Shown here piece after piece: positions 16,598-28,956 of a stretch of 64,000 bases of DNA. The stretch covers positions 1 to 64,000 of the forward strand of contig CAMWUN010000004.1 in assembly GCA_947177425.1 (NCBI GenBank), given 5' to 3'. The translations under genes were made by a program, and so were the position numbers. Position 1 is the stretch's first letter, and each line of letters opens with the position of its first letter. A model generated the notes under the pieces. The model saw only the letters and a list, made by a program, of their open reading frames with translations, searched no databases and was not told the origin of the DNA. This DNA is from an uncultured bacterium. Its GTDB lineage: Bacteria; Bacillota; Clostridia; Lachnospirales; Lachnospiraceae.

Positions 16598-18940
16598 TTA
16601 TTTTAAAGGCCCAAGGGGCTTAAGAGCTTTCAATTCATCCAGTCTCCTTGCAGCGTTTTCTCTAAGGTATGGTGAAATTTCTTCAAACTGTGAGTAAGTA
16701 AGTTCATTGCCCATTTCCAGATATTTTACCAGGACTTCTTCCAGCTTGCTGCTTCCAAGGTATGGTGCACAGTCACTTATCAGTTCAAAAGAAATATTAT
16801 CCATGGCAAGCAGCATTTCTTTCAGCCCCGCTGACCCTAAATAGGGTGCACATTCACGCACTGTATCGCCGGAAACCTTTTCGCCTGCTGTCAAAAGCAG
16901 TGTTTTCAGCTTATCCCCGCCAAGATAAGGGGCTATATAAACAATAATATCGTCGCCTGGATAGCCTGCTTTTCCATTTTTTATGGCTTCCCCCAGATAA
17001 GAAGCAGATAAATCAGAATCAGAATATATGATAAGTTCTTCCAGTTCTTCACCGGTCAGGGACACGCCCTGATTTAACAGAACAGCCAGCGCCTCACTGA
17101 CCACTTCATCGTCCAGATAGTAAAGCAGTTCCATCAGTTTATCTTTATCCACCTTCCCATCCTTAATTTCTGCGGCCATCATTGCGCTTCCTTCATCATC
17201 CTCCGAATACCATATACTTTCAAACTCATTCTTCCTTAAATAAGGGAACTCTGCCCGGAGATTGCTGACTTTTGCACCCTGGCCTACAAATTTGATCACA
17301 TTCCTCCCAGCCTTTATATTCACAGAAAACGAGCCTGCTTCCCCTGTATCATTAATAACGGCCACTTCGCCGTCGGGATTTATATGGACAATCTTGAAAC
17401 GCCCGTCCTTTACCTCAAAAGCGGAATCCACCTGCAGTTCAACATCTCTTTTGGCTATAAAAATCCGCACGGAAGCAGTTCCGTTCAGGTACATCCCGTC
17501 ACACTTTATCCGCTCCCCGCCTCCTGAATACGAGTGCATATGCCACTGGTCGCTGACATCCTTTCCGGCTGTCAGATCATCATCATCATAGGCCCTCCAG
17601 GCTTCTCCCTGCTTATCCACCAGCACTGGTTTATCCAGAAAGTCGTCCAGTCCTGTATCCAGCCATCCCCCTATGGCCGCTCCCATGTCATCCCAGAAGG
17701 AAACATACTCTGCTGTAGATTCGTCCCAGAAAGCGGAATATTCATGGCCGGCATCCTTTTCTTTGGAATCTGCCGAAATCTGCACCGGCATGGCGTCTGG
17801 CTCCGCCTGCACACTGGCACAGGCCGACAAAAGTAAAATCACCCCTGACAGGCAGATGGAAACCACTGTCCGTAATCCGCCCTGCTTTTTATATTGGAGA
17901 ATCCCTTTCAGTCTCATCTTTAAGTCTTCCTTTCTCTCCAGCAACGTTGTGGAGGGGATATTCCTGTTAATATTCATGTTCTTCCGGGCAGTGTCAATCA
18001 GCACATTGCCGTATGCCTTCTTCCCTTCCCCCGTCAATGCCGCAAGCACGGCCTCGTCGCAGGAAAGTTCGCAGTCAATATTCAGCTTTATGCCAACCAG
18101 ATAGAGGACCGGATTGAACCAGTGGATACAGAGCAGCATCTGGTATGCCCACTTATACCATAAATCTTTCCTTTTCACATGAAGCAGTTCATGATGAAGT
18201 ACCATCTGCAAATCCTTCAAATCCCATGCTTCCTCAGGCAGAACTATCACAGGGCGGACAATTCCCACGGTAATAGGTACGGAAACACTTCCGCTTTTAT
18301 ATAGGGCAGGCACTTTCCTCATGCGAAGCCTCTTTGCCAGTTCCTTTGCCATATCGTTTATACCCTCATCCAAAATGGGGACACAGTCTTTTTTCATGCC
18401 GGAAGTAAAACACAGATAATTTCTCATCTTGATAAACAGGCTGATTCCTGCACCCCACAGCCAGAGGATTCCCAGCATAACGCCCCAGTCTGCGGACAGG
18501 AAAGCCCCCTGCCTGCGCCCATTCCCTGTTGAAGCCTTTGCGCCGTCCTGCCCCTGTAGTCTGCCGGATGCAGCCTCTGCCCTCTGACTGTCATTCTGCA
18601 AAAGCGGCTGTTCCTGCGGCTGATTTGGCATGCCGGCAGTTCCTTTCTCCTGCTCCTCAGGCTGCATCTGTGCAGAACCTGCCTCTTGTTCCTTTTCCGT
18701 TACCGGCACCGCTCCCACCGCCTCTTCCTGCCCGGCCGTTTCTCCCTTTATCAGCACAGCAGAGTAGTCCGTGTGGAAATAAACCGGAATCACCAGCCTT
18801 GCAATCACTAAAATCCATATATAGTAATTCCACCTCTTTGAAAAAAGTCTTCCGCTGACAGGGCGTATGCATAATATCAGCAGTCCTGTCAATGCGCCCG
18901 ATAAAGACAATGACAGCACACACATAAAAATTTGTCTCAT
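16598..18940 (-). CDS. BlaR1/MecR1-type M56 metalloprotease sensor with an unusual C-terminal domain
   Basis: Membrane zinc protease that senses an extracellular signal and inactivates its BlaI-type repressor. 780 residues. The N-terminal membrane segments (ILCIRPVSG, WNYYIWILVIARLVIPVYF) are followed by a Gln/Glu-rich loop (about 70-140). The M56 domain carries H250-E-L-L-H254 in MVLHHELLHVKRKDLW and NIDCELSCDEAVLAAL. After a further membrane segment (VVSICLSGVILLLSACA) comes a large extracellular part without a penicillin-binding domain: a beta-rich region (about 420-570) and then about 170 residues of helical repeats containing APYLGG, APYLGS, APYLGS and SPYLRE. The start was chosen at the ATG with AAGGAG 7 bases upstream. 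The cognate repressor gene lies 47 bases upstream. Confidence 0.9.
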   Translation of the reverse strand: MRQIFMCVLSLSLSGALTGLLILCIRPVSGRLFSKRWNYYIWILVIARLVIPVYFHTDYSAVLIKGETAGQEEAVGAVPVTEKEQEAGSAQMQPEEQEKGTAGMPNQPQEQPLLQNDSQRAEAASGRLQGQDGAKASTGNGRRQGAFLSADWGVMLGILWLWGAGISLFIKMRNYLCFTSGMKKDCVPILDEGINDMAKELAKRLRMRKVPALYKSGSVSVPITVGIVRPVIVLPEEAWDLKDLQMVLHHELLHVKRKDLWYKWAYQMLLCIHWFNPVLYLVGIKLNIDCELSCDEAVLAALTGEGKKAYGNVLIDTARKNMNINRNIPSTTLLERKEDLKMRLKGILQYKKQGGLRTVVSICLSGVILLLSACASVQAEPDAMPVQISADSKEKDAGHEYSAFWDESTAEYVSFWDDMGAAIGGWLDTGLDDFLDKPVLVDKQGEAWRAYDDDDLTAGKDVSDQWHMHSYSGGGERIKCDGMYLNGTASVRIFIAKRDVELQVDSAFEVKDGRFKIVHINPDGEVAVINDTGEAGSFSVNIKAGRNVIKFVGQGAKVSNLRAEFPYLRKNEFESIWYSEDDEGSAMMAAEIKDGKVDKDKLMELLYYLDDEVVSEALAVLLNQGVSLTGEELEELIIYSDSDLSASYLGEAIKNGKAGYPGDDIIVYIAPYLGGDKLKTLLLTAGEKVSGDTVRECAPYLGSAGLKEMLLAMDNISFELISDCAPYLGSSKLEEVLVKYLEMGNELTYSQFEEISPYLRENAARRLDELKALKPLGPLK

Positions 18941-18987
18941 CACATTCTCCTTCCCACAAAAAAAACGGAAACTATCTGAAAACCTGC

Positions 18988-19359
18988 TTAACAATTCTGG
19001 TTAAAATAGTCGCGCAGTTCTCTGATATCTTCCTCGGTCAGCGCCCTGCTGTTCACCAACGCCGCCGCCAGATTCCGGGAACTTCCCTTAAAGAATTTAT
19101 CCACAAAATTTTTCGTCTCTCCCCTGACGTATTCTTCACGTCCGATACTGGGAGCGTAATAATACACTTCACGCTTCTCCTGACTAATCACATTCTTCTT
19201 CAGAAGCCGCTGAATCAGGGTAAGGACTGTGGTCCTCTCCCAGCTTTTGTTCTTCCCCAGCCGCGTGCGGATCTCATTGGCATTTAAGAAATCCCCGGCT
19301 GACCACAAAACCTCAAGTATCTCCAATTCCGCATCGGAAACGGTAATTTTCTTCTCCAT
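18988..19359 (-). CDS. BlaI/MecI/CopY family repressor (first module)
   Basis: Dimeric winged-helix repressor inactivated by cleavage from the partner M56 protease. 123 residues: the winged helix (ITVSDAELEILEVLWSAGDF, SWERTTVLTLIQRLLKKNVI, REVYYYAPSIGREEYVRGE) and a helical dimerisation tail (LAAALVNSRALTEEDIRELR). The start has GGGAGGA 7 bases upstream. It sits directly upstream of the M56 sensor gene and downstream of a promoter overlapped by two 16-bp dyads, so it is very likely autoregulated. Confidence 0.93.
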   Translation of the reverse strand: MEKKITVSDAELEILEVLWSAGDFLNANEIRTRLGKNKSWERTTVLTLIQRLLKKNVISQEKREVYYYAPSIGREEYVRGETKNFVDKFFKGSSRNLAAALVNSRALTEEDIRELRDYFNQNC

Positions 19360-19397
19360 TTTCTTCCTCCCTGTCAAGTCCTCGTTACACATTCAGA

Positions 19398-19448
19398 GTC
19401 TACTTTTGTAGACATTTTAAGTTTACACCTGTAGACACCAAATGTCAA
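19398..19448 (-). promoter_or_regulatory. Promoter and two operators of the first BlaI/M56 module
   Basis: On the minus strand TTGACA (19443-19448), a 17-base spacer and TAAACT (19420-19425). One operator-like dyad, GTTTACACCTGTAGAC (19421-19436), lies between -35 and -10; the perfect palindrome GTCTACTTTTGTAGAC (19398-19413) covers the start site. The TAC...GTA core and the promoter overlap fit BlaI/MecI-type repression. Confidence 0.8.
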
Positions 19449-20595: not shown

Positions 20596-21888
20596 TTATT
20601 GTTCCCACCGCACTACATCCCCCTTTTTAATTTCCATGGTAGAAGAAATTACAACTTTGCTGTCCTTATCCAGAGTCCCTTCCTCAAGGGCCGCCCAATT
20701 CTCGTTTTTGTCAATAACTTTCACATTCATCTCATCTACGTAATATTCCTGTCCAAGAATACCTTCCCGCTCCTTCAGCACATAGACATAGTTTCTGTCC
20801 TCTTGGGTATTAAGGGCTGTTACGGGGATGCAACACTTATGTTTTTCACCGTTTTCCGACCGGGCAATGGTGCCGGAAGCGCCGGGGACCCCTGTATTTT
20901 GGGGAAGCTCTATCAAAGCTTCATATTTTTCAGGCGCCGTTCTGCTTTCAGCAAGATACCCAATCTTATCCTCCAGCGCTCTGCCCGCACCCTCTATTTT
21001 TACAGAAACTTCATCCCCCAGACTTATGTATTTCTTCTGCTCCTTATCTAACGTCACCTTCAACTGGCAGGGCAGGCTTTCGTCAGATATGAGCAGAACC
21101 GCCGTATCCGGCACCCTGTCCCCCACACCTGCAAGAATTTCTGTTATCACGCCTCCAAAGGGCGCTTTTACAATTCCCTGACTGTCCACAATCTTTTGCA
21201 GTTCCTGCATATCGGCCCAAAGGCTGGCTTTCTCCACCTGGGCCACTTCAAGGTCGGATGCTGCGTTGTCCGGCAGAAGGATGTCCTCCACTTTCCTGCC
21301 TGCCAGTTTCACCGCTTCGTCCCGCTGTGCTTTGGCGTCGGCCTCTTCGTATGCCGCGCTCTGCAGGGCATCTTTTAAGGATTCATCGCCCCCGTTTTCC
21401 TCCAAATCCTCCTGTGCCTGGCTGTAGCTTTCCGTCGCACGCCCCACCTGGGTGTCCTGTATCCGGGCGGTGGTATCGTAATCCTCTCTGGCCCGGGCAA
21501 GCTCCAGCTCCTTTTTCTGCTGTGCAATGGCCTGGTTTTCCAGAATCGCGTCAATCTGGAGGGAAACCTTGGAAATCTCAGTTCTCTTATCCTCTATCAT
21601 CTTCCCTAAATCCTCCAGGTCAATCTGAAACAGAATATCGCCTTCCTCCACTCTGTCCCCTGCATGAACCGGCATGGCGTCTATCCGGAGCCCCGGCAGA
21701 TATGTGACGGTCTTTTCCCCTCCCGCCACAACGATTCCCTCCGCTTCCACTTTATGCTCCACATACTTGGACTCCGGCTGGCATGTGCCCACCATGGGAA
21801 GCCTGTGTGCATAAATACTCCTGGAAATCACCGTGCACATCATCATTGCTATTAAAAAAACTGCAAATCCAATCATAATTTTTTTCAT
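20596..21888 (-). CDS. HlyD/MacA-like membrane fusion (adaptor) protein
   Basis: Extracellular adaptor of an exporter. 430 residues: an N-terminal membrane anchor (IMIGFAVFLIAMMMCTVISR), a first lipoyl half (VEAEGIVVAGGEKTVTYLPG, VHAGDRVEEGDILFQI), a long helical hairpin (about 105-235, Glu/Gln/Ala-rich), a second lipoyl half (GIVKAPFGGVITEILAGVGD) and C-terminal beta domains. The start is the ATG after GGAGG. Its usual partners, a MacB-type permease and ATPase, are not in the window. It follows the sugar-type permease gene by about 150 bases on the same strand and may belong to that operon. Confidence 0.87.
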   Translation of the reverse strand: MKKIMIGFAVFLIAMMMCTVISRSIYAHRLPMVGTCQPESKYVEHKVEAEGIVVAGGEKTVTYLPGLRIDAMPVHAGDRVEEGDILFQIDLEDLGKMIEDKRTEISKVSLQIDAILENQAIAQQKKELELARAREDYDTTARIQDTQVGRATESYSQAQEDLEENGGDESLKDALQSAAYEEADAKAQRDEAVKLAGRKVEDILLPDNAASDLEVAQVEKASLWADMQELQKIVDSQGIVKAPFGGVITEILAGVGDRVPDTAVLLISDESLPCQLKVTLDKEQKKYISLGDEVSVKIEGAGRALEDKIGYLAESRTAPEKYEALIELPQNTGVPGASGTIARSENGEKHKCCIPVTALNTQEDRNYVYVLKEREGILGQEYYVDEMNVKVIDKNENWAALEEGTLDKDSKVVISSTMEIKKGDVVRWEQ

Positions 21889-22042
21889 CCTAATCCTCCA
21901 TGCCGGAACATTTTGTGGGCAGGCCAAATGTCAGATCCGGCTCTGCGATTCAAATTTGTGACGCTCCGGTACAAATTATTCCCTTTTGCTGGAAAAAGCG
22001 CTTTACGGAACAGTCCCTGCCATGCGTATCAGGGGCTTCTTC

Positions 22043-22942
22043 TCACGCTTTCAGACCCGAATAGATAATCCCCTGTTCCAGATAATCCTGTCCCATTAAA
22101 AAAACAAACACCGCCGGAACCAGCGTAATCGCGCTGGCGCAGAACGCAAATCCCGCCTGTCCCCAGGTAATTTCCGGCAGATATAAGGATAGGGGCCATA
22201 AGGATTTTTCCTCCAGAAATGCCATGGGCTGTTCCATCATATTCCAGTATTCCAGAAACCCAAGCACCATGGCGGAGAGCAGGCCGCTTTTTCCAAGAGG
22301 AAGGCCGATCCTTATAAATATGGTAAGTTCTCCGGCGCCATCCACCCTTGCCGCTTCCAGCATCTGGGGCGGTATCCCCCGGAATCCACCATAGGATAAG
22401 AACACCGGGAAGGTGGAAAATACAGCCGGAAGGATAATGGCCTGATGGGTGTTGAGCAAATCCAGTCTGTTCAGCACCAGATAGCTGGAAAGCATCGTCA
22501 CCTGAAAAGGAAGGAGCATCAGCACCACATACAGGCTGAATAATATTCTGCTGCCTCTGGCCTGATATACCGCAAATCCCCATGCCGCCGGAACCGCCGC
22601 CAGAAGCTGTCCTGCCAGAATACAGCACACCAGCTTCATGGAATTCCAGAACAAAATAAAAAACTGGGGTGTAGCAAATAGCAGCTTTCCATAATTTTCA
22701 AAAGAGGGATAATCGGGTATCAGTTTCCAGCTAATAAATCCTTCCCCATTCATAAACACCGGGTTCAGATACTCTTTCATTTCCAGGGCGTCCATAAGGG
22801 CTCCTGACAAAAGGAGGGCAATAGGCAGCGCCACAAGCAGGGCGGGCAGGGAAAGGCTAAGGACCGCCAGCGCTTTTTTGAAAATTTTTATCCCTTTCCC
22901 GGCTTTATTGTTTTTTCCTGTTGTTTTTTTCATCCCATTCAT
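22043..22942 (-). CDS. ABC transporter permease, MalG (carbohydrate) type
   Basis: Inner membrane component of a binding-protein-dependent importer. 299 residues with about six membrane segments. The EAA loop that contacts the ATPase reads EAARVDGAGELTIFIRIGLP. The N-terminus is basic (KKTTGKNNKAGKGIKIFKK). It overlaps the 3' end of the MalF-type gene by 38 bases, showing translational coupling. The ligand is unknown; the MalFG family is mostly sugar-specific, but the partner binding protein is atypical. Confidence 0.9.
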   Translation of the reverse strand: MNGMKKTTGKNNKAGKGIKIFKKALAVLSLSLPALLVALPIALLLSGALMDALEMKEYLNPVFMNGEGFISWKLIPDYPSFENYGKLLFATPQFFILFWNSMKLVCCILAGQLLAAVPAAWGFAVYQARGSRILFSLYVVLMLLPFQVTMLSSYLVLNRLDLLNTHQAIILPAVFSTFPVFLSYGGFRGIPPQMLEAARVDGAGELTIFIRIGLPLGKSGLLSAMVLGFLEYWNMMEQPMAFLEEKSLWPLSLYLPEITWGQAGFAFCASAITLVPAVFVFLMGQDYLEQGIIYSGLKA

Positions 22943-23792
22943 TTCCGTCCCACAACCTCTGTAATATCAGAATAACTATCATCAAAAACCCACCTGTACA
23001 CACTGCTGCAGCCGCCATTTTGTCCAGTTCCAGATTGACAAACCAGTTGTTGAACAAATGCTGCAGCAGATAGATGCTTTTGTCGGGATAGGCCCCTGCT
23101 GTAAGATAAGCCTCCCGGTAAATCTTGAAGGAATTTAAAAAAGATAAAATCACAATGGTGTACAGGCTTCCCTTTAAATTAGGCAGGATAATATACCACA
23201 TCCTCTGCCATTTTCCTGCACCGTCCACCCTTGCCGCCTCCAGAAGGGCTGCAGGTATTGCTTTTATACCTGCCAGCCACAAAATCACCGTATATCCCAG
23301 ATTCTTCCATACATAGCTTCCCACCAGAACCCAGAAAGCCGCCGGTGTCCCCAGATAATCCCTCCGTACCTCTCCCCAAATCCCTGTCCACGTACCCAGA
23401 CCGGTGAGAAACAAATTTAAAAACCCCTGCCTGTAAAACACCATTTTCCATACCATCACAATGGTTGCCGTGGGCATGGCAAGGGGAAACAGATACACAG
23501 CCTTCATCCATCCCCTGCTCCCCAGCCCGTTCAGCAGCAACGCCGTCACAAATCCTGTCAGCACCAGCAAAGGAATACACACCAGCGTAAAGCCCATGGT
23601 GTTTTTCACCGCCAGCAGAAAAGCCTGATTGGTAAAAATAATTCCGTAGTTTTTTACTCCTGTAAACTTTCCCGTCACTGCCCCGGTAAAGGATCTTCTG
23701 ACCACATCCCCGAAGGGAAGCAGCACAAAAACCAGAATTCCCAGAAAGCCGGGGGATACAAATAAATAAAAGAATTTTCTCTTCTTCCTCAT
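22905..23792 (-). CDS. ABC transporter permease, MalF (carbohydrate) type
   Basis: First membrane component of the same importer. 295 residues: about six membrane segments (FFYLFVSPGFLGILVFVLLP at the N-terminus) and the ATPase-contact loop EAARVDGAGKWQRMWYIILP. It starts 15 bases downstream of the binding-protein gene and overlaps the MalG-type gene. The ribosome binding site is weak, suggesting coupling to the upstream gene. Confidence 0.9.
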   Translation of the reverse strand: MRKKRKFFYLFVSPGFLGILVFVLLPFGDVVRRSFTGAVTGKFTGVKNYGIIFTNQAFLLAVKNTMGFTLVCIPLLVLTGFVTALLLNGLGSRGWMKAVYLFPLAMPTATIVMVWKMVFYRQGFLNLFLTGLGTWTGIWGEVRRDYLGTPAAFWVLVGSYVWKNLGYTVILWLAGIKAIPAALLEAARVDGAGKWQRMWYIILPNLKGSLYTIVILSFLNSFKIYREAYLTAGAYPDKSIYLLQHLFNNWFVNLELDKMAAAAVCTGGFLMIVILILQRLWDGNEWDEKNNRKKQ

Positions 23793-23807: not shown

Positions 23808-26312
23808 TTATTCTGACATATAAATGGCAAGTCTTTGTCCAATGGCGCCCAGCGCTTCTTCAAGGCTCTGCTCTCCCCGGATAAACTTTTCCCCTTCTTC
23901 AAATACTGCTTTTTCAAGGACAATGTCCGCTATATAAGGGGTATCCGCCGTTTCCATCCAGCTTTTCAGCGTGTCCAGTTCCTCCTCCCCGGGCAGATAA
24001 ACATCCATATAAACTACCAGGCCGTCACCGTCCGTCATGCCCAGCGAACTATATTCCCCGTTTTCCCCGGCATATTCTTCATCAGATATAAATTGCTGGT
24101 CAAAGGCTTCTTTGTTAATCACATATCCGCCCAGCGCATACTGGATGTCTTTTCCCAGAAAAGCTTTCAGGAAATCCTTTGCCAGTTCTGTCTGGGAGGA
24201 GGCCGCATTGATTCCCAGAATCGTTTTAGGGATAAAAAATTTCCTGTTGTCATTTTCCATCCATACTAATTCTGTGTCTTCAAATCCCTCTGCCTTTGAG
24301 GCGGAGGTAAGCCCGTAATATCCATAGGGATAATTATTTTCTCCTACAGACAACTGCTGGTATCCGCCTATGTAATACAAATACTCCTCCCCGAAAAAGC
24401 TGATATCATACATCCAGTCCTCTCCAAACTCTGACGTGAGGTACTCACTGTTTTCCTCATACCTTTCCAGGCTTTTTTCATCCAGTCCGTCCATCTGGGC
24501 ATCGTAAATCCGCTTTATCTGGGTCAGGAATTCCCCAATGGCATCCTGATTTATTTCCCCGTTGTCCTTTTTCCATGCCGGGGCACTGATGGGGGCAAAA
24601 ACTTTCATAACCGCCTTTTCCTCACAGATGCCGAGAATATCTTTTCCGGGATTCTCATCCCTTATCTGCTCAATCCCATCCGCCAAAGACACCATATCTT
24701 TTCTGCCGGAAATATATTTCTCCCTCCCCAGCATTAAGGGAAAGGAAACCTCGCAGGGAATCCCATAAATCTCCCCGTCTTTTGCAAGGGCCTGATAGAG
24801 ATTGCTGTACATTGCTTCTTCCCCGCCGCACGCCTGCATGAAGTCCCCAAGTTCCAAAAGCAGCCCTTTTTCCATATAAGAATCCATGGGCAGTCCGTCC
24901 AGCATCAGAAGGTCAGGCCCTTCCCCTGCCATAATCCGGGTATTCAGTTTCTTTAAGGCGTCTTCTCTGGTGACAGCGCCGCCTTCCTCCATCCCTGTCT
25001 CATATTCCACATAAACATCCGGGTTCTGTATCTGGTAAAGGGATATCCCTGTGCGGATGCTGTAGCTTTCCGTAAGGCTGTATATTTTCAGCTTCTGTCC
25101 CGGCATGGACGGCATATCGGGATCATAGGTAAAGCGCACCAGCTTTCCGTCATTGGAAACCGCCAGAAATTCTTCCTCCCCCAAAGGAATCATAGCCTTG
25201 ATACAAAAGAGGGGACTGCCCAGCCGTGACAGCCTTCCGTCAATCAACTGCTCCACACTATCCTGCCCGATTACATGCCGGTGCAGGCCCTTCTCCCCTG
25301 CCAGATAAATCACTATGTCTGTTTCCGCATTGTCCGCCGGGAACATATACAGGTCGTACCAGCTTCCGCCGTTAAATCCCCTGTCCCCATAATTTTCTCT
25401 GACAAATTCTGCAAAGACTTCGTCTTCCACCGTCTCTTCCTTTTCCATATCATAAAGAACCGGCGCCTGGAAATCATAACCGTCTATCAGCATAAGACTT
25501 CCAAAAAACTGTATCAACTGCGGCCGCCCATCCACTGTAAGAAACAATCTGCTGCTGCCGTCTCCGTTCACTTCGTAAATGTTGTACCCCTGGGTAGTCA
25601 CGAACATCCTTCCCTGCTCCGACATCCAGATATTCTTCGGATACATATCATCCTCTGTCAGGGGAAAGGACACCGGAACCACTGTACCGTCACTCTTTAC
25701 AAGTGCACATTCGGGGCTGAAGCCGTCGTCTATTCCCACCACCACCTCCTGCTCCGTGTCTTCTTCCTGTCCAGAGTCTTCCTGGTCTTCACTTTCCTGC
25801 TCTCCTGCGCCTTCCTGGGCTGCGCTCTCCTGCTGGTCTGATTCCTCCTGTTCCTCTGTACTCTCCTGTTTTGCGCTTTCCTCTTCCAGATCCTCTACAT
25901 AATCTGCATAGCCCTCATAAACAACCCCAAGGGTTCCACTGGCATCTGTCTGTATGTCCAGAAAATAGGCTTCATTCGTCTTTTGGGCCAGCCATTCATT
26001 TTTTACTTCGTTCCATGAAGCCCCATTATCCTTTGATTCCCATAATCCACAGTTTCTGTCAGAGATAACAAGGGTTCCGTCAGGAAATTTTTTTAAATTG
26101 CTGACTACCTCCAGTTCGTCTGTCAAGTCAAATTCTTCTTCCCCATACCGCCCCATGGCAATCTCCCCAGACTGGCCGTCCTCTCCTTCTGTCAGCCCGC
26201 TTTGGCCGTTCTCCTTCCGGGGATTTCCGCCTGCATCCTGATTCCCGCAGCCTGCCAGTAATACTGCCGCCAACAGCAGGCATATTATCTTTTTAATCCA
26301 TAAACCCTTCAT
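23808..26312 (-). CDS. Large substrate-binding lipoprotein with an N-terminal propeller-like domain
   Basis: Binding component of the MalFG-type importer, but about twice the usual size (834 residues). The signal peptide ends in the lipobox LLAGC (Cys at 22). Residues about 65-400 look like a beta-propeller: an Asp-box SKDNGASW, and repeated GTLVISD, GTLGVVYEG, GRMFVTTQGYNIYEVNGDGS and EEFLAVSNDGKLVRF strands. It is interrupted by a 50-residue Glu/Gln/Ser-rich low-complexity stretch (about 140-190). From about 408 the sequence follows extracellular solute-binding family 1 (GEGPDLLMLDGLPMDSYMEK, GEIYGIPCEVSFPLMLGREK). The start is the ATG after AGGAG. A BlaI-type operator lies upstream. Confidence 0.85.
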   Translation of the reverse strand: MKGLWIKKIICLLLAAVLLAGCGNQDAGGNPRKENGQSGLTEGEDGQSGEIAMGRYGEEEFDLTDELEVVSNLKKFPDGTLVISDRNCGLWESKDNGASWNEVKNEWLAQKTNEAYFLDIQTDASGTLGVVYEGYADYVEDLEEESAKQESTEEQEESDQQESAAQEGAGEQESEDQEDSGQEEDTEQEVVVGIDDGFSPECALVKSDGTVVPVSFPLTEDDMYPKNIWMSEQGRMFVTTQGYNIYEVNGDGSSRLFLTVDGRPQLIQFFGSLMLIDGYDFQAPVLYDMEKEETVEDEVFAEFVRENYGDRGFNGGSWYDLYMFPADNAETDIVIYLAGEKGLHRHVIGQDSVEQLIDGRLSRLGSPLFCIKAMIPLGEEEFLAVSNDGKLVRFTYDPDMPSMPGQKLKIYSLTESYSIRTGISLYQIQNPDVYVEYETGMEEGGAVTREDALKKLNTRIMAGEGPDLLMLDGLPMDSYMEKGLLLELGDFMQACGGEEAMYSNLYQALAKDGEIYGIPCEVSFPLMLGREKYISGRKDMVSLADGIEQIRDENPGKDILGICEEKAVMKVFAPISAPAWKKDNGEINQDAIGEFLTQIKRIYDAQMDGLDEKSLERYEENSEYLTSEFGEDWMYDISFFGEEYLYYIGGYQQLSVGENNYPYGYYGLTSASKAEGFEDTELVWMENDNRKFFIPKTILGINAASSQTELAKDFLKAFLGKDIQYALGGYVINKEAFDQQFISDEEYAGENGEYSSLGMTDGDGLVVYMDVYLPGEEELDTLKSWMETADTPYIADIVLEKAVFEEGEKFIRGEQSLEEALGAIGQRLAIYMSE

Positions 26313-26349: not shown

Positions 26350-26405
26350 GACTATTGCAATAGTCTATCCATTCATAGACTATCACAATAGTCACTTTGT
26401 GTCAA
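26350..26405 (-). promoter_or_regulatory. Promoter and paired operators of the transporter operon
   Basis: On the minus strand TTGACA (26400-26405), a 17-base spacer and TAGTCT (26377-26382). The operators GACTATCACAATAGTC (26378-26393) and the perfect palindrome GACTATTGCAATAGTC (26350-26365) are 28 bp apart. The whole block forms a larger inverted repeat from 26344 to 26399. The -10 box, the spacer tail GTGA and the operator spacing are the same as at 28642-28697 in front of the second BlaI gene. Confidence 0.85.
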
Positions 26406-26473
26406 TTGTTTTTATTTTCCCAGAGTTTTATGCTGTCTGCCCGGGCGCGCGGCTTATCCTGCCAGACGCACCG

Positions 26474-28021
26474 TTACCATGCCCCTGTCCAGGCCCGTGA
26501 ATATTCTTTAGATTCCTCTATGGAAAGCCGCTCAAGCCCCGTGATTTTCCCATTGTCATCACGCTTGGCGACCACCCCTGTATAGCCGTTTTCCTCTCCT
26601 GCTTCCCTTGCATATACTCTTCCGGAAAATCCCTCTCCTGTCTTGCTCCTGTTATCTGCAAAAAAGTAAACCGGCTCCCCGTAATAATAAAGCTGGTAAT
26701 CATCCGTACTGTATTCCGCACTCAGCCCGTCATCCTTAAATTCCTCCACAAGATTTTCAATACCTGTCTTCAGACTTGAGGGCATACCGTCTGTCTCCCA
26801 CATTTCCCATTCGCCTCCGGCCCGCGCCGCTTCTGTTTCTGCACTGGCTGCCGTTGTACTTTCCACAGCTTCAGCTGCGGCACTTGTTTCCCCAGGCTGA
26901 ACCGAGTCTATTGTCACCTGATATATTACCGCATTTTCATCCTCCGCCACTTCCGCCCAGCCAATAATGTCTTCTGCCTTCTGTGCTGTTACAGAATATT
27001 CTGCTGCACTGGCCGTATTGTGTGACGTGCTCTGGGCAGCGCTGGTAACAAAAACCGTCAGAGCGCTTGCCACTGCCGCTGTTGCCGCCAACATCCCAAT
27101 CAGTGTTGTCTTTTTAAAGGTCATAACCGCAACAATCCTCTCCTTCACAGCATTTTGGCCAAACCCAAGGCCGGTTCTGAACCCCATGCTCCTGCACTCT
27201 GCCAGCGACAGCAGCGCCTGCGCATATTCCTTCCTGTTTCCGCCCTCCCGCTTTACCACAGTCTCATCACACAAAAGTTCCATATCCCTGTTAAAAAGAA
27301 GATACATCACCCACACAAGGGGATTAAACCAGTGAAGGCAGAGCGCCCCGTGAGCAGCCAGCTTTTTCAGATTGTCATGGTTGATAATGTGCACCAGTTC
27401 GTGCCGCAGACACAACCCGGTTTCCTTTTCATTCAAAAAAAAGATTCCCTTTGGGAAAACCACAGACGGACGCAGCACCCCATAAGTCACAGGAGTGGCA
27501 GTCCGGTCCGATATCTGGAATTTTACCCTGCAGAGCCTTTCCTTCTCCCTCTCCTCCAGCCGGGAAACGGCAAGCAGTCTCTCCCTTTCCTGCTCTGGCA
27601 TGGGCAGCCCTTCCCTGAATAACTGGCTGTCCCTGAAATATAGGAAAGCAGAGCCCGCGGCCATCAGCACAGCCCCTGCCAGATAGACGGCCGCAAACAG
27701 CATCGTCTGATTCTGTTCCGAAGTCACAGCTATCACTCCCCCCCGGCTGTTCTGTGCAACATCTTCCATAGCTTCCTGATTTGTCTCATATACTTTTGTT
27801 TCCAGATTATATATCTGCCCGTCCAGGGCCACATGATCCGTCAGACTTCCTATTCCCGGAAGGGACAGGGAAATGGAAAAGGGAAATAATAAACGTAAAA
27901 TCACAATTTCCCAGAGAACTATCATCACCTTCTTTGGCAGGCGATGTATCAACAGGGAACGGAAAATCACAATCCCCACAATCAGGATTCCCGCTGCCAT
28001 GCTCATTTGTATCAGATTCAT
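26474..28021 (-). CDS. BlaR1-type M56 metalloprotease sensor (second module)
   Basis: Membrane zinc protease of the BlaR1/MecR1 group. 515 residues: N-terminal membrane segments (AAGILIVGIVIFRSLLI, IVLWEIVILRLLFPFSISL), the M56 domain with H207-E-L-V-H211 (LRHELVHIINHDNL), LCLHWFNPLVWVMYLLFNRD and ELLCDETVVKR. A further membrane segment (MLAATAAVASALTVFVTSAA) precedes a small extracellular part of about 190 residues with an Ala/Glu/Thr linker. There is no penicillin-binding domain, so the signal is unlikely to be acylation by a beta-lactam. The ribosome binding site is AAGGAGGG. It follows its repressor gene by 171 bases and precedes the transporter operon. Confidence 0.9.
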   Translation of the reverse strand: MNLIQMSMAAGILIVGIVIFRSLLIHRLPKKVMIVLWEIVILRLLFPFSISLSLPGIGSLTDHVALDGQIYNLETKVYETNQEAMEDVAQNSRGGVIAVTSEQNQTMLFAAVYLAGAVLMAAGSAFLYFRDSQLFREGLPMPEQERERLLAVSRLEEREKERLCRVKFQISDRTATPVTYGVLRPSVVFPKGIFFLNEKETGLCLRHELVHIINHDNLKKLAAHGALCLHWFNPLVWVMYLLFNRDMELLCDETVVKREGGNRKEYAQALLSLAECRSMGFRTGLGFGQNAVKERIVAVMTFKKTTLIGMLAATAAVASALTVFVTSAAQSTSHNTASAAEYSVTAQKAEDIIGWAEVAEDENAVIYQVTIDSVQPGETSAAAEAVESTTAASAETEAARAGGEWEMWETDGMPSSLKTGIENLVEEFKDDGLSAEYSTDDYQLYYYGEPVYFFADNRSKTGEGFSGRVYAREAGEENGYTGVVAKRDDNGKITGLERLSIEESKEYSRAWTGAW

Positions 28022-28073
28022 TTCTCACCCTCCTTTTTAAGTTCCGCATCTGACCTCCCAGTACCATAACCGG

Positions 28074-28115
28074 CAGAACAATGCCCGCCTGAAAGCATAG
28101 CCGGCCATTGTTCTG
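28074..28115 (-). repeat. Inverted repeat between the second BlaI gene and its M56 gene
   Basis: CAGAACAATG (28074-28083) and CATTGTTCTG (28106-28115), loop 22. It lies in the 171-base gap between the two co-directional genes without a T-run; it could stabilise or process the mRNA. Confidence 0.5.
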
Positions 28116-28192
28116 GGCACTGTTTGGACAGATGCTGTTAAAAATTGTTCTTGACATTTCTTAGCTGGACTTAAAACCCGTCTTTGCCCTGC

Positions 28193-28546
28193 TTAATCCA
28201 GGTCGTCAATCAGCTTCTTTAACTGGCCGACCTCCTGCCTGGACAGTTTCTTCCCATCCAGGAAAGCTGCAAAAAACTTCTCTCTGGAACCGTCAAACAT
28301 CTTGTCAATCAACTCCTCCGTCTCGTAATCCTGTATTTCCTGCCGTGAAACAAGGGGGCTGCACATAAAACCGGGTTCTTCCCGCTTTACCGCGCCCTTG
28401 TCTATGCACTTCTTGATTACCGTATAAGTGGTGTTCCTGTTCCAGCCAGTTTCCTCCTTTAAAATTTTTACAATCTGCCCTGCCGGGATTTTCCCTTCGC
28501 GCCAGAGCACCTCCATTATCTTACGTTCCGAATCAAACAGCTTCAT
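28193..28546 (-). CDS. BlaI/MecI family repressor (second module)
   Basis: 117-residue winged-helix repressor: FDSERKIMEVLWREGKIPAG, WNRNTTYTVIKKCIDKGAVK, REEPGFMCSPLVSRQEIQDY, then a dimerisation and cleavage region (LIDKMFDGSREKFFAAFLDG, LSRQEVGQLKKLIDDLD). The start is the ATG after AGGAGAGG; a longer upstream extension has no homology. Its promoter region carries the same operator pair as the transporter promoter 2.3 kb downstream, so it should regulate both itself and the transporter. Confidence 0.93.
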   Translation of the reverse strand: MKLFDSERKIMEVLWREGKIPAGQIVKILKEETGWNRNTTYTVIKKCIDKGAVKREEPGFMCSPLVSRQEIQDYETEELIDKMFDGSREKFFAAFLDGKKLSRQEVGQLKKLIDDLD

Positions 28547-28641
28547 TTTCCTCTCCTTTGTCATTTTCCATATCAAATACGCTCTCGTACAGCATTGCGT
28601 AATTAACGGTGAATGCTGTGCCAGGCGGATGCCATTAATCC

Positions 28642-28697
28642 GACTACTGTAATAGTCTGCCTGTAATAAGACTATCACAGTAGTTAGGTCATGTCAA
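28642..28697 (-). promoter_or_regulatory. Promoter and paired operators of the second BlaI gene
   Basis: On the minus strand TTGACA (28692-28697), a 17-base spacer and TAGTCT (28669-28674). The operators are GACTATCACAGTAGTT (28670-28685) and GACTACTGTAATAGTC (28642-28657), 28 bp apart. Compare 26350-26405. Confidence 0.85.
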
Positions 28698-28755: not shown

Positions 28756-28792
28756 ATCTACAGATATGAAAATTCAATATTGTAAAGAATCT

Positions 28793-28956
28793 CTTATTCA
28801 GAGTGGTGGAGGTACATAGGACCGGTGAAGCCACGGCAACCCCATTATGGAAGGTGCCTACCTGAGCGAATAAGCAGCCTTACGGCGAATCGAACAATAA
28901 GAGGATTTGATTATCGGTTATCGGGTCCGCTTATTTACATAGTAAGCGGATTTTTT
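28793..28956 (+). promoter_or_regulatory. SAM-I (S-box) riboswitch with terminator
   Basis: The aptamer shows stem P1 CTTATTC (28793-28799) / GAATAAG (28868-28874), the conserved AGAGTGGTGGAGG, GAAGCCACGGCAACC and GGAAGGTGCCTACCTGAGCG core elements. The expression platform ends in the terminator TCCGCTTA (28926-28933) / TAAGCGGA (28943-28950) plus T6. When SAM is bound the terminator should form and stop metK transcription about 100 bases before the start codon. Confidence 0.95.

What the first reader, a model, noticed from the sequence alone, without database searches (positions are those of the whole stretch)
26350..28697. A BlaI/M56 module shares an identical promoter-operator design with the neighbouring transporter operon
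Seen: the regions before the second BlaI gene and before the lipoprotein/MalFG operon both read TTGACA, 17 bases ending GTGA, TAGTCT, with two 16-bp dyads (GACTATYRCARTAGTY type) exactly 28 bp apart. One dyad overlaps the -10 and the other lies after the start site. Known: BlaI-type repressors bind such dyads and are cleared when the M56 protease is activated. Inferred: the transporter is switched on by the same extracellular signal as the sensor operon, giving a closed sensor-repressor-transporter circuit unrelated to beta-lactamase.
Basis: partly seen in the sequence, partly recalled or inferred. Interest (0 to 1): 0.78.

Follow-up and report, generated by a model that had tools for sequence, protein, structure and literature searches.

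The report
BlaI switch rewired onto a transporter
In one genus of Lachnospiraceae bacteria, a repressor and membrane-protease pair of the kind that controls penicillin resistance in staphylococci appears to have taken over a nutrient-type transporter that relatives, and a second copy in the same genome, keep beside an ordinary two-component sensor.

Summary
The 4.19-Mb genome holds exactly two places with two close ACTA-N6-TAGT dyads: before blaI/M56 (28642-28685) and before the lipoprotein-MalF-MalG-HlyD operon (26350-26393), both over TTGACA-17-TAGTCT. The design is conserved: 21 of 22 orthologous transporter promoters examined carry it. The one without it (G014) has no close BlaI orthologue and a two-component system (TCS) instead. 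The 28-bp spacing is not conserved (23-29 bp); the place of the first dyad over the -10 is. Dyad-less copies stand beside a TCS in 19 of 20 loci of the genus (including the paralogue in this genome) and 16 of 21 outside it, beside BlaI in 0 of 41. On a MalF+MalG tree the dyad-bearing operons form one clade nested among TCS-linked ones. Best reading: one regulatory takeover, BlaI/M56 for TCS. The neighbouring BlaI (18988-19392) has another operator code (GTCTAC), found once in the genome. M56B keeps HExxH...E but shows no penicillin-sensor domain. Binding, cleavage, signal and substrate are inferred; a published C. thermocellum DAP-seq/EMSA study supports motif and layout. New variant of a known kind.

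The parts
28193..28546 (-). blaIB, BlaI/MecI-family repressor, 117 aa from the ATG at 28546 (the ORF is open further upstream to 28678)
   Evidence: Pfam Penicillinase_R 89.6 bits; MecI/BlaI structures match; orthologues of 80% or more in 20 of 37 genus genomes
26474..28021 (-). M56B, BlaR1-like membrane protease without recognisable penicillin-sensor domain
   Evidence: Pfam Peptidase_M56; HExxH...E invariant in 19 of 19; BlaR1 model matched at 7-348 of 585 only
28669..28697 (-). promoter of blaIB-M56B: TTGACA-17-TAGTCT
   Evidence: same kind in 19 of 19 blaIB promoters
28670..28685 (-). blaI operator, first dyad, over the -10
28642..28657 (-). blaI operator, second dyad
26377..26405 (-). promoter of the transporter operon: TTGACA-17-TAGTCT
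   Evidence: 21 of 22 orthologous promoters
26378..26393 (-). transporter operator, first dyad, over the -10
26350..26365 (-). transporter operator, second dyad
23808..26312 (-). 834-aa lipoprotein with solute-binding C-terminal half
   Evidence: Pfam SBP_bac_1 29.3 bits, cut-off 26; profile matches oligosaccharide-binding proteins
22905..23792 (-). MalF-type permease
   Evidence: Pfam BPD_transp_1
22043..22942 (-). MalG-type permease
   Evidence: Pfam BPD_transp_1
20596..21927 (-). HlyD-like adaptor (start probably further downstream, at the first ATG)
   Evidence: Pfam HlyD_3; RND_mfp below cut-off
19398..19436 (-). for contrast: operator pair of the neighbouring BlaIA (GTCTAC type), not part of the circuit

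Best explanation
BlaIB represses two units: its own blaI-M56B operon and the separately transcribed lipoprotein-MalF-MalG-HlyD operon. It binds a dyad laid over the -10, usually helped by a second dyad 22-29 bp downstream. When the membrane protease M56B perceives an unknown, probably non-beta-lactam envelope signal, it cleaves BlaIB near A94-F95 and both units are derepressed. The transporter is probably the main target, since its operator is complete in every dyad-bearing copy examined while the blaI copy is often degenerate. The wiring arose once in the genus: an operon of a family that otherwise stands beside a two-component system came under a BlaI/M56 pair. Shown by comparison: operator, conservation, association, clade. 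Inferred: binding, cleavage, signal, substrate, direction of the change.
For: The pair occurs at two places in the genome, control 0. 21 of 22 orthologous transporter promoters have TTGACA-17-TAGTCT with both dyads 8 of 8 in the core; all 19 blaIB promoters examined have a dyad over the -10 and 16 of 19 a second one. Genus genomes: BlaIB and dyad-bearing transporter 18, BlaIB only 2, transporter only 2, neither 15 of 37 (Fisher p 1.7e-6, relatedness not corrected). Dyad-less copies: same TCS in 19 of 20 genus loci, TCS in 16 of 21 outside, BlaI in 0 of 41. One clade of 21 dyad-bearing rows in a tree of 55, SH-aLRT 95. Regulator and transporter trees share 13 of 14 splits. Outside the genus 19 of 23 loci with a pair hold a BlaI homologue. 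DAP-seq/EMSA in C. thermocellum: GACTAT half-sites, two pairs of inverted repeats (PMC8457756). HExxH...E and A94-F95 conserved.
Against: No experiment. G025 (96% complete) and G031 (78%) carry the dyad-bearing transporter without a BlaIB of 80% or more; G030 and G015 have BlaIB without that transporter. 3 of 19 blaIB promoters have one dyad only, and 9 of 19 have 7 of 8 core bases in the first. Over the family the pair is rarer (25 of 299 genomes) than its reversed control (60 of 299, hand count), so there only position speaks. The tree is quick, without bootstrap, and holds 14 of the 20 dyad-less genus loci.
Confidence: 0.78

Rival explanations
1. The transporter is controlled by another BlaI of the genome, such as BlaIA, or by several BlaI paralogues together.
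For: 13 BlaI-family matches in the genome. G025 and G031 keep the dyads without a close BlaIB, and other BlaI proteins of the family (41-68% identical) stand beside the same kind of dyad pair.
Against: BlaIA has its own operator pair, GTCTAC type, seen in five of five BlaIA copies inspected and once in the genome. BlaIB is next door and co-inherited. The operators of the other 11 BlaI genes were not resolved.
Confidence: 0.1
2. The pair is a beta-lactam or wall-antibiotic resistance switch, and the transporter is its resistance effector.
For: M56B is BlaR1-like in its protease half. The authors of PMC8457756 assign small BlaI regulons to a beta-lactam response by annotation (section 25).
Against: M56B matches the BlaR1 model only up to position 348 of 585; its last 104 residues match no Pfam family and no solved structure convincingly. 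No beta-lactamase among the ten proteins scanned.
Confidence: 0.15
3. The dyads before the transporter are an inherited remnant of a duplicated blaI promoter without present function.
For: Both promoters are alike in -35, spacer, -10 and dyad 1. G025 and G031 keep them without a close BlaIB.
Against: All 16 core bases are kept in 21 of 21 dyad-bearing promoters although the inter-dyad sequence and length vary; the operator stays with the transporter where BlaIB-M56B lies several genes away or on another contig (L060, L066, L068).
Confidence: 0.05

Closest known systems
BlaI-BlaR1 / MecI-MecR1 (Staphylococcus aureus, Bacillus licheniformis)
   Same: BlaI-family repressor beside an M56 protease with HExxH...E; counterpart of the cleavage site N101-F102
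   Different: No penicillin-sensor domain found, no beta-lactamase or PBP target; the target is a transporter; other operator code
Clostridium thermocellum BlaI_1845 and BlaI_0696 (PMC8457756)
   Same: GACTAT or GTCTAT half-sites, two pairs of inverted repeats, small regulons
   Different: Targets there are the own operon, a gene of peptidoglycan synthesis type and hypothetical genes; no transporter in the section read
TCS-linked SBP-MalF-MalG-HlyD operons of Lachnospiraceae (e.g. G000:C107, L084)
   Same: Same four transporter genes in the same order
   Different: Beside a response regulator and histidine kinase instead of BlaI/M56; outside the genus 16 of 21 also hold a MacB-like gene
Carbohydrate-type ABC importers with shared ATPase
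   Same: Solute-binding lipoprotein and two MalFG permeases; no ATPase gene in the operon, a UgpC-type ATPase elsewhere in the genome
   Different: Large extra N-terminal half of the lipoprotein and a HlyD-like adaptor in the operon

Membership tests
BlaI/MecI repressor family | Penicillinase_R domain | tested here: met
   89.6 bits, cut-off 22.6
BlaI/MecI repressor family | operator dyads at own promoter | tested here: met
   19 of 19 blaIB promoters examined
BlaI/MecI repressor family | DNA binding and cleavage | not testable with these tools
   site counterpart A94-F95 invariant in 19 of 19
BlaR1/MecR1 beta-lactam sensors | M56 protease with HExxH...E | tested here: met
BlaR1/MecR1 beta-lactam sensors | C-terminal penicillin-binding sensor domain | tested here: not met
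   model matched at 7-348 of 585; BlaR1 structure aligned over the first 274 profile positions only
Carbohydrate-type ABC importer (SBP + MalFG) | SBP_bac_1 and BPD_transp_1 domains | tested here: met
   all three over cut-off
Carbohydrate-type ABC importer (SBP + MalFG) | transport of a sugar | not testable with these tools
   no experiment; structure prediction switched off

The most novel reading that the evidence does not exclude
A transporter family of Lachnospiraceae (solute-binding lipoprotein, MalFG permeases, HlyD adaptor), otherwise standing beside a two-component system, had its sensor exchanged once for a BlaI/M56 proteolytic switch. The genus thus runs two copies of one transporter, one beside a kinase and one under a protease-cleaved repressor. 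The system may take up or clear an envelope-derived or foreign oligosaccharide or peptide that M56B senses directly or by its effect on the envelope.
Probability: 0.55. Interest if true: 0.72.

Novelty: new variant of a known kind. Interest (0 to 1): 0.6.

Why it matters
What BlaI/M56 pairs do outside beta-lactam resistance is largely open (my own knowledge), although this genome alone has 13 BlaI-family matches. Here is a predicted regulon of two operons with a conserved operator, a TCS-linked paralogue in the same genome as built-in control, and an apparent single change of regulator. The targets of such a pair, and then its signal, become directly testable.

Tried and rejected
Considered and dropped: (1) 28-bp spacing as a functional constant: varies. 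(2) Chance dyads. (3) Control by BlaIA: separate operator code. (4) A generic dyad finder for the operators of the 13 BlaI genes: too crude; no protein found for 4 of 13 and no dyad found even for BlaIA and BlaIB, so it says nothing. (5) Structures of lipoprotein and M56B: tool switched off. (6) Relatives of the M56B C-terminal 104 residues in the genome: itself only. (7) Promoter duplication: both promoters share short stretches after the second dyad in some genomes; not tested. (8) Literature: eight searches of an open-licence library listed no paper that I recognised as being on a BlaI/M56-controlled MalFG transporter or on this operon family. I read passages and section 25 of PMC8457756 and passages of PMC9834060; of all other papers I saw listings only.

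Rows dropped, added or not fetched: L177 left out of the tree, no MalF. G012 (L083), where the dyads precede MalF with no lipoprotein gene between, is counted by its MalF promoter. blaIB promoters of G008 and G035 were not fetched: 19 promoters are 18 of the 20 genus orthologues plus strain 1XD21-87. Outside the genus I fetched 20 of the 44 places that one search lists beyond G000 (three genomes gave two each), plus L096. The six dyad-less genus loci L188-L193 were fetched last, for a recount; they are and not in the tree. One search left BlaIA-type hits out of its print and missed a distant kinase; one search replaces it. The printed output was cut.

Full report
WHAT IS THERE. The genes of the unit lie on the minus strand. 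In gene direction: blaIB (28546-28193), M56B (28021-26474), then from its own promoter an 834-aa lipoprotein (26312-23808), MalF- and MalG-type permeases (23792-22905, 22942-22043) and a HlyD-like adaptor (21927-20596). Both promoters read TTGACA-17-TAGTCT, with one dyad over the -10 and another 28 bp downstream. 100 shuffles of the window never give this.

IN THE WHOLE GENOME. Two ACTA-N6-TAGT dyads with 4-30 bases between occur only at these two places in 4,191,497 bases; the reversed control occurs 0 times. Single dyads with up to 2 mismatches are no commoner than the control (26/24 against 36/33): the pair is what counts. The genome has 13 BlaI-family matches.

CONSERVATION. The lipoprotein matches at E <= 0.001 in 37 of 60 genomes (own included), many of them distant solute-binding proteins; close orthologues (53-61% in the best stretch) are in 20 genomes of the genus, own included. 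The pair pattern is in 24 of 37 genus genomes, the reversed control in 7 of 37. I examined 22 orthologous transporter promoters: the 20 just named, strain 1XD21-87 (L033), and G012, where the dyads precede MalF directly. 21 have TTGACA-17-TAGTCT with both dyads complete in all 8 core bases; spacings 28 (6), 26 (6), 25 (5), 29 (2), 23 (2). Of 19 blaIB promoters, 19 have TTGAC-18-TAGT[CA]T with a dyad over the -10; that dyad has 7 of 8 core bases in 9 of 19; 16 of 19 have a second dyad, 22-28 bp away. The transporter's operator is the better kept of the two.

WHO GOES WITH WHOM. BlaIB orthologues of 80% or more are in 20 of 37 genus genomes. Together with a dyad-bearing transporter: both 18, BlaIB only 2 (G030, G015), transporter only 2 (G025, G031), neither 15; Fisher p 1.7e-6 without correction for relatedness. 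In 17 of 21 dyad-bearing loci (window included) BlaIB lies in the same fetched stretch; in G008 (L060) it is about 10 kb away, in G035 (L068) on another contig, in G025 and G031 not found. G025 and G031 remain exceptions; G031 is 78% complete, G025 96%. Where BlaIB-M56B is separated from the transporter (L060, L066, L068) the operator stays with the transporter. Trees of BlaI+M56 and of MalF+MalG share 13 of 14 splits over 17 loci, at most 3 in 2000 shuffles; this shows shared descent, whether vertical or as a unit.

A CHANGE OF REGULATOR. Of 20 dyad-less copies in the genus, 19 have the same response regulator (73% or more identical to the one of L087) and histidine kinase (58% or more) nearby; the twentieth, L090, ends at a contig edge. 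Of 21 loci outside the genus, 16 have a response regulator and kinase matched by these queries (47% and 29% or more, two of the query pairs or regulators coming from these loci). A BlaI match at E <= 1e-5 is in 0 of 41 and the dyad pair in 0 of 41. The set includes the second copy in the window's own genome (G000:C107, L084) and G014 (L074), the orthologue without dyads and without a close BlaIB (best BlaI 54%). Four dyad-bearing loci have distant response regulators in the stretch (L058, L063, L070, L072; 40% or less). On a MalF+MalG tree of 55 rows the 21 dyad-bearing operons form one clade (SH-aLRT 95), with L090/L091 and then L074 next outside and TCS-linked copies around them. The tree is a quick one, rooted at the midpoint for drawing. 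The simplest reading is one replacement of the TCS by BlaI/M56. In a BlaI+M56 tree the two BlaIB-M56B pairs without transporter, which lie between metK and dnaE as in the window, attach at the base of the group, unresolved. That is in keeping with a resident pair that acquired the transporter, and does not show it.

THE OTHER BLAI. BlaIA (18988-19392) has its own pair, GTCTACAGGTGTAAACT and GTCTACAAAAGTAGAC, over TTGACA-17-TAAACT; all five BlaIA copies inspected have such a pair, and the genome has the pattern once, at 19398-19436. Two neighbouring systems of one family thus use one layout and two codes.

HOW IT PROBABLY WORKS. Code and layout match the C. thermocellum BlaI proteins, whose half-sites are GACTAT and GTCTAT, and for which two pairs of inverted repeats were called apparently a strict requirement for regulation (PMC8457756, section 25; DAP-seq, EMSA on single sites). 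Over the family 25 of 299 genomes have the pair. The reversed control is in 60 of 299 by my hand count, so frequency proves nothing there. Position does: of the 23 loci outside the genus 19 hold a BlaI homologue within the fetched stretch of about 3 kb; L099, L101, L102 and L108 do not. In M56B H207, E208, H211 and E248 are invariant in 19 of 19, spaced as H201, H205 and E242 of BlaR1 (PMC9834060, passages). A94-F95 of BlaIB, invariant in 19 of 19, aligns with the N-F of MecI, the counterpart of the BlaI cleavage site N101-F102 (that the two number alike is recalled). M56B shows no penicillin sensor; its conserved last 104 residues match nothing useful. Cleavage and signal are inferred from homology.

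THE TRANSPORTER. The C-terminal half of the lipoprotein resembles solute-binding proteins (7x0o CbpC, 4r9f MBP1, 5f7v Lmo0181, MalE); its N-terminal half weakly matches entries that I recall as propeller proteins (Scone, 3hxj), none passing as a single stretch. The operon has no ATPase gene; a UgpC-type ATPase over the cut-off is elsewhere in the genome. A HlyD-like adaptor with MalFG is unusual to my knowledge, and 16 of 21 loci outside the genus add a MacB-like gene, 0 of 20 dyad-less ones in the genus. Uptake of an oligosaccharide or wall fragment is a guess.

NOVELTY. Eight searches of an open-licence library listed nothing that I recognised as this circuit; subscription papers are mostly not covered. 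The parts are known, the combination and the change of regulator look new: a new variant of a known kind.

Noticed in passing
window 28791-28903 (+): SAM riboswitch (RF00162, 68.4 bits) before the divergent metK gene.
   Followed up: no
window 16598-19436: A second BlaI/M56 pair (BlaIA/M56A) with its own operator pair of another code (GTCTAC) in the same two-dyad layout; one such place in the genome.
   Followed up: partly
L077:8990-9639, L078:8577-9227, L108:893-1543: In three other genomes the dyad pair precedes a 181-aa secreted-looking protein of unknown function; in L108 an M56-like ORF ends just upstream: another likely BlaI target.
   Followed up: no
L096, L164-L183, L084-L095, L188-L193: A widespread operon family: solute-binding lipoprotein, MalF, MalG, HlyD-like adaptor, often a MacB-like gene, beside a two-component system; I know no description of it.
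   Followed up: partly
window 26477-26788 (-): Conserved C-terminal 104 residues of M56B without Pfam or convincing PDB match: candidate sensor domain.
   Followed up: partly
L083:7789-8793: In G012 the dyad pair stands directly before MalF, with no lipoprotein gene between.
   Followed up: no
L079, L080: G030 and G015 have BlaIB-M56B between metK and dnaE with a full dyad pair but no transporter there, next to a further, more distant BlaI/M56 pair.
   Followed up: partly
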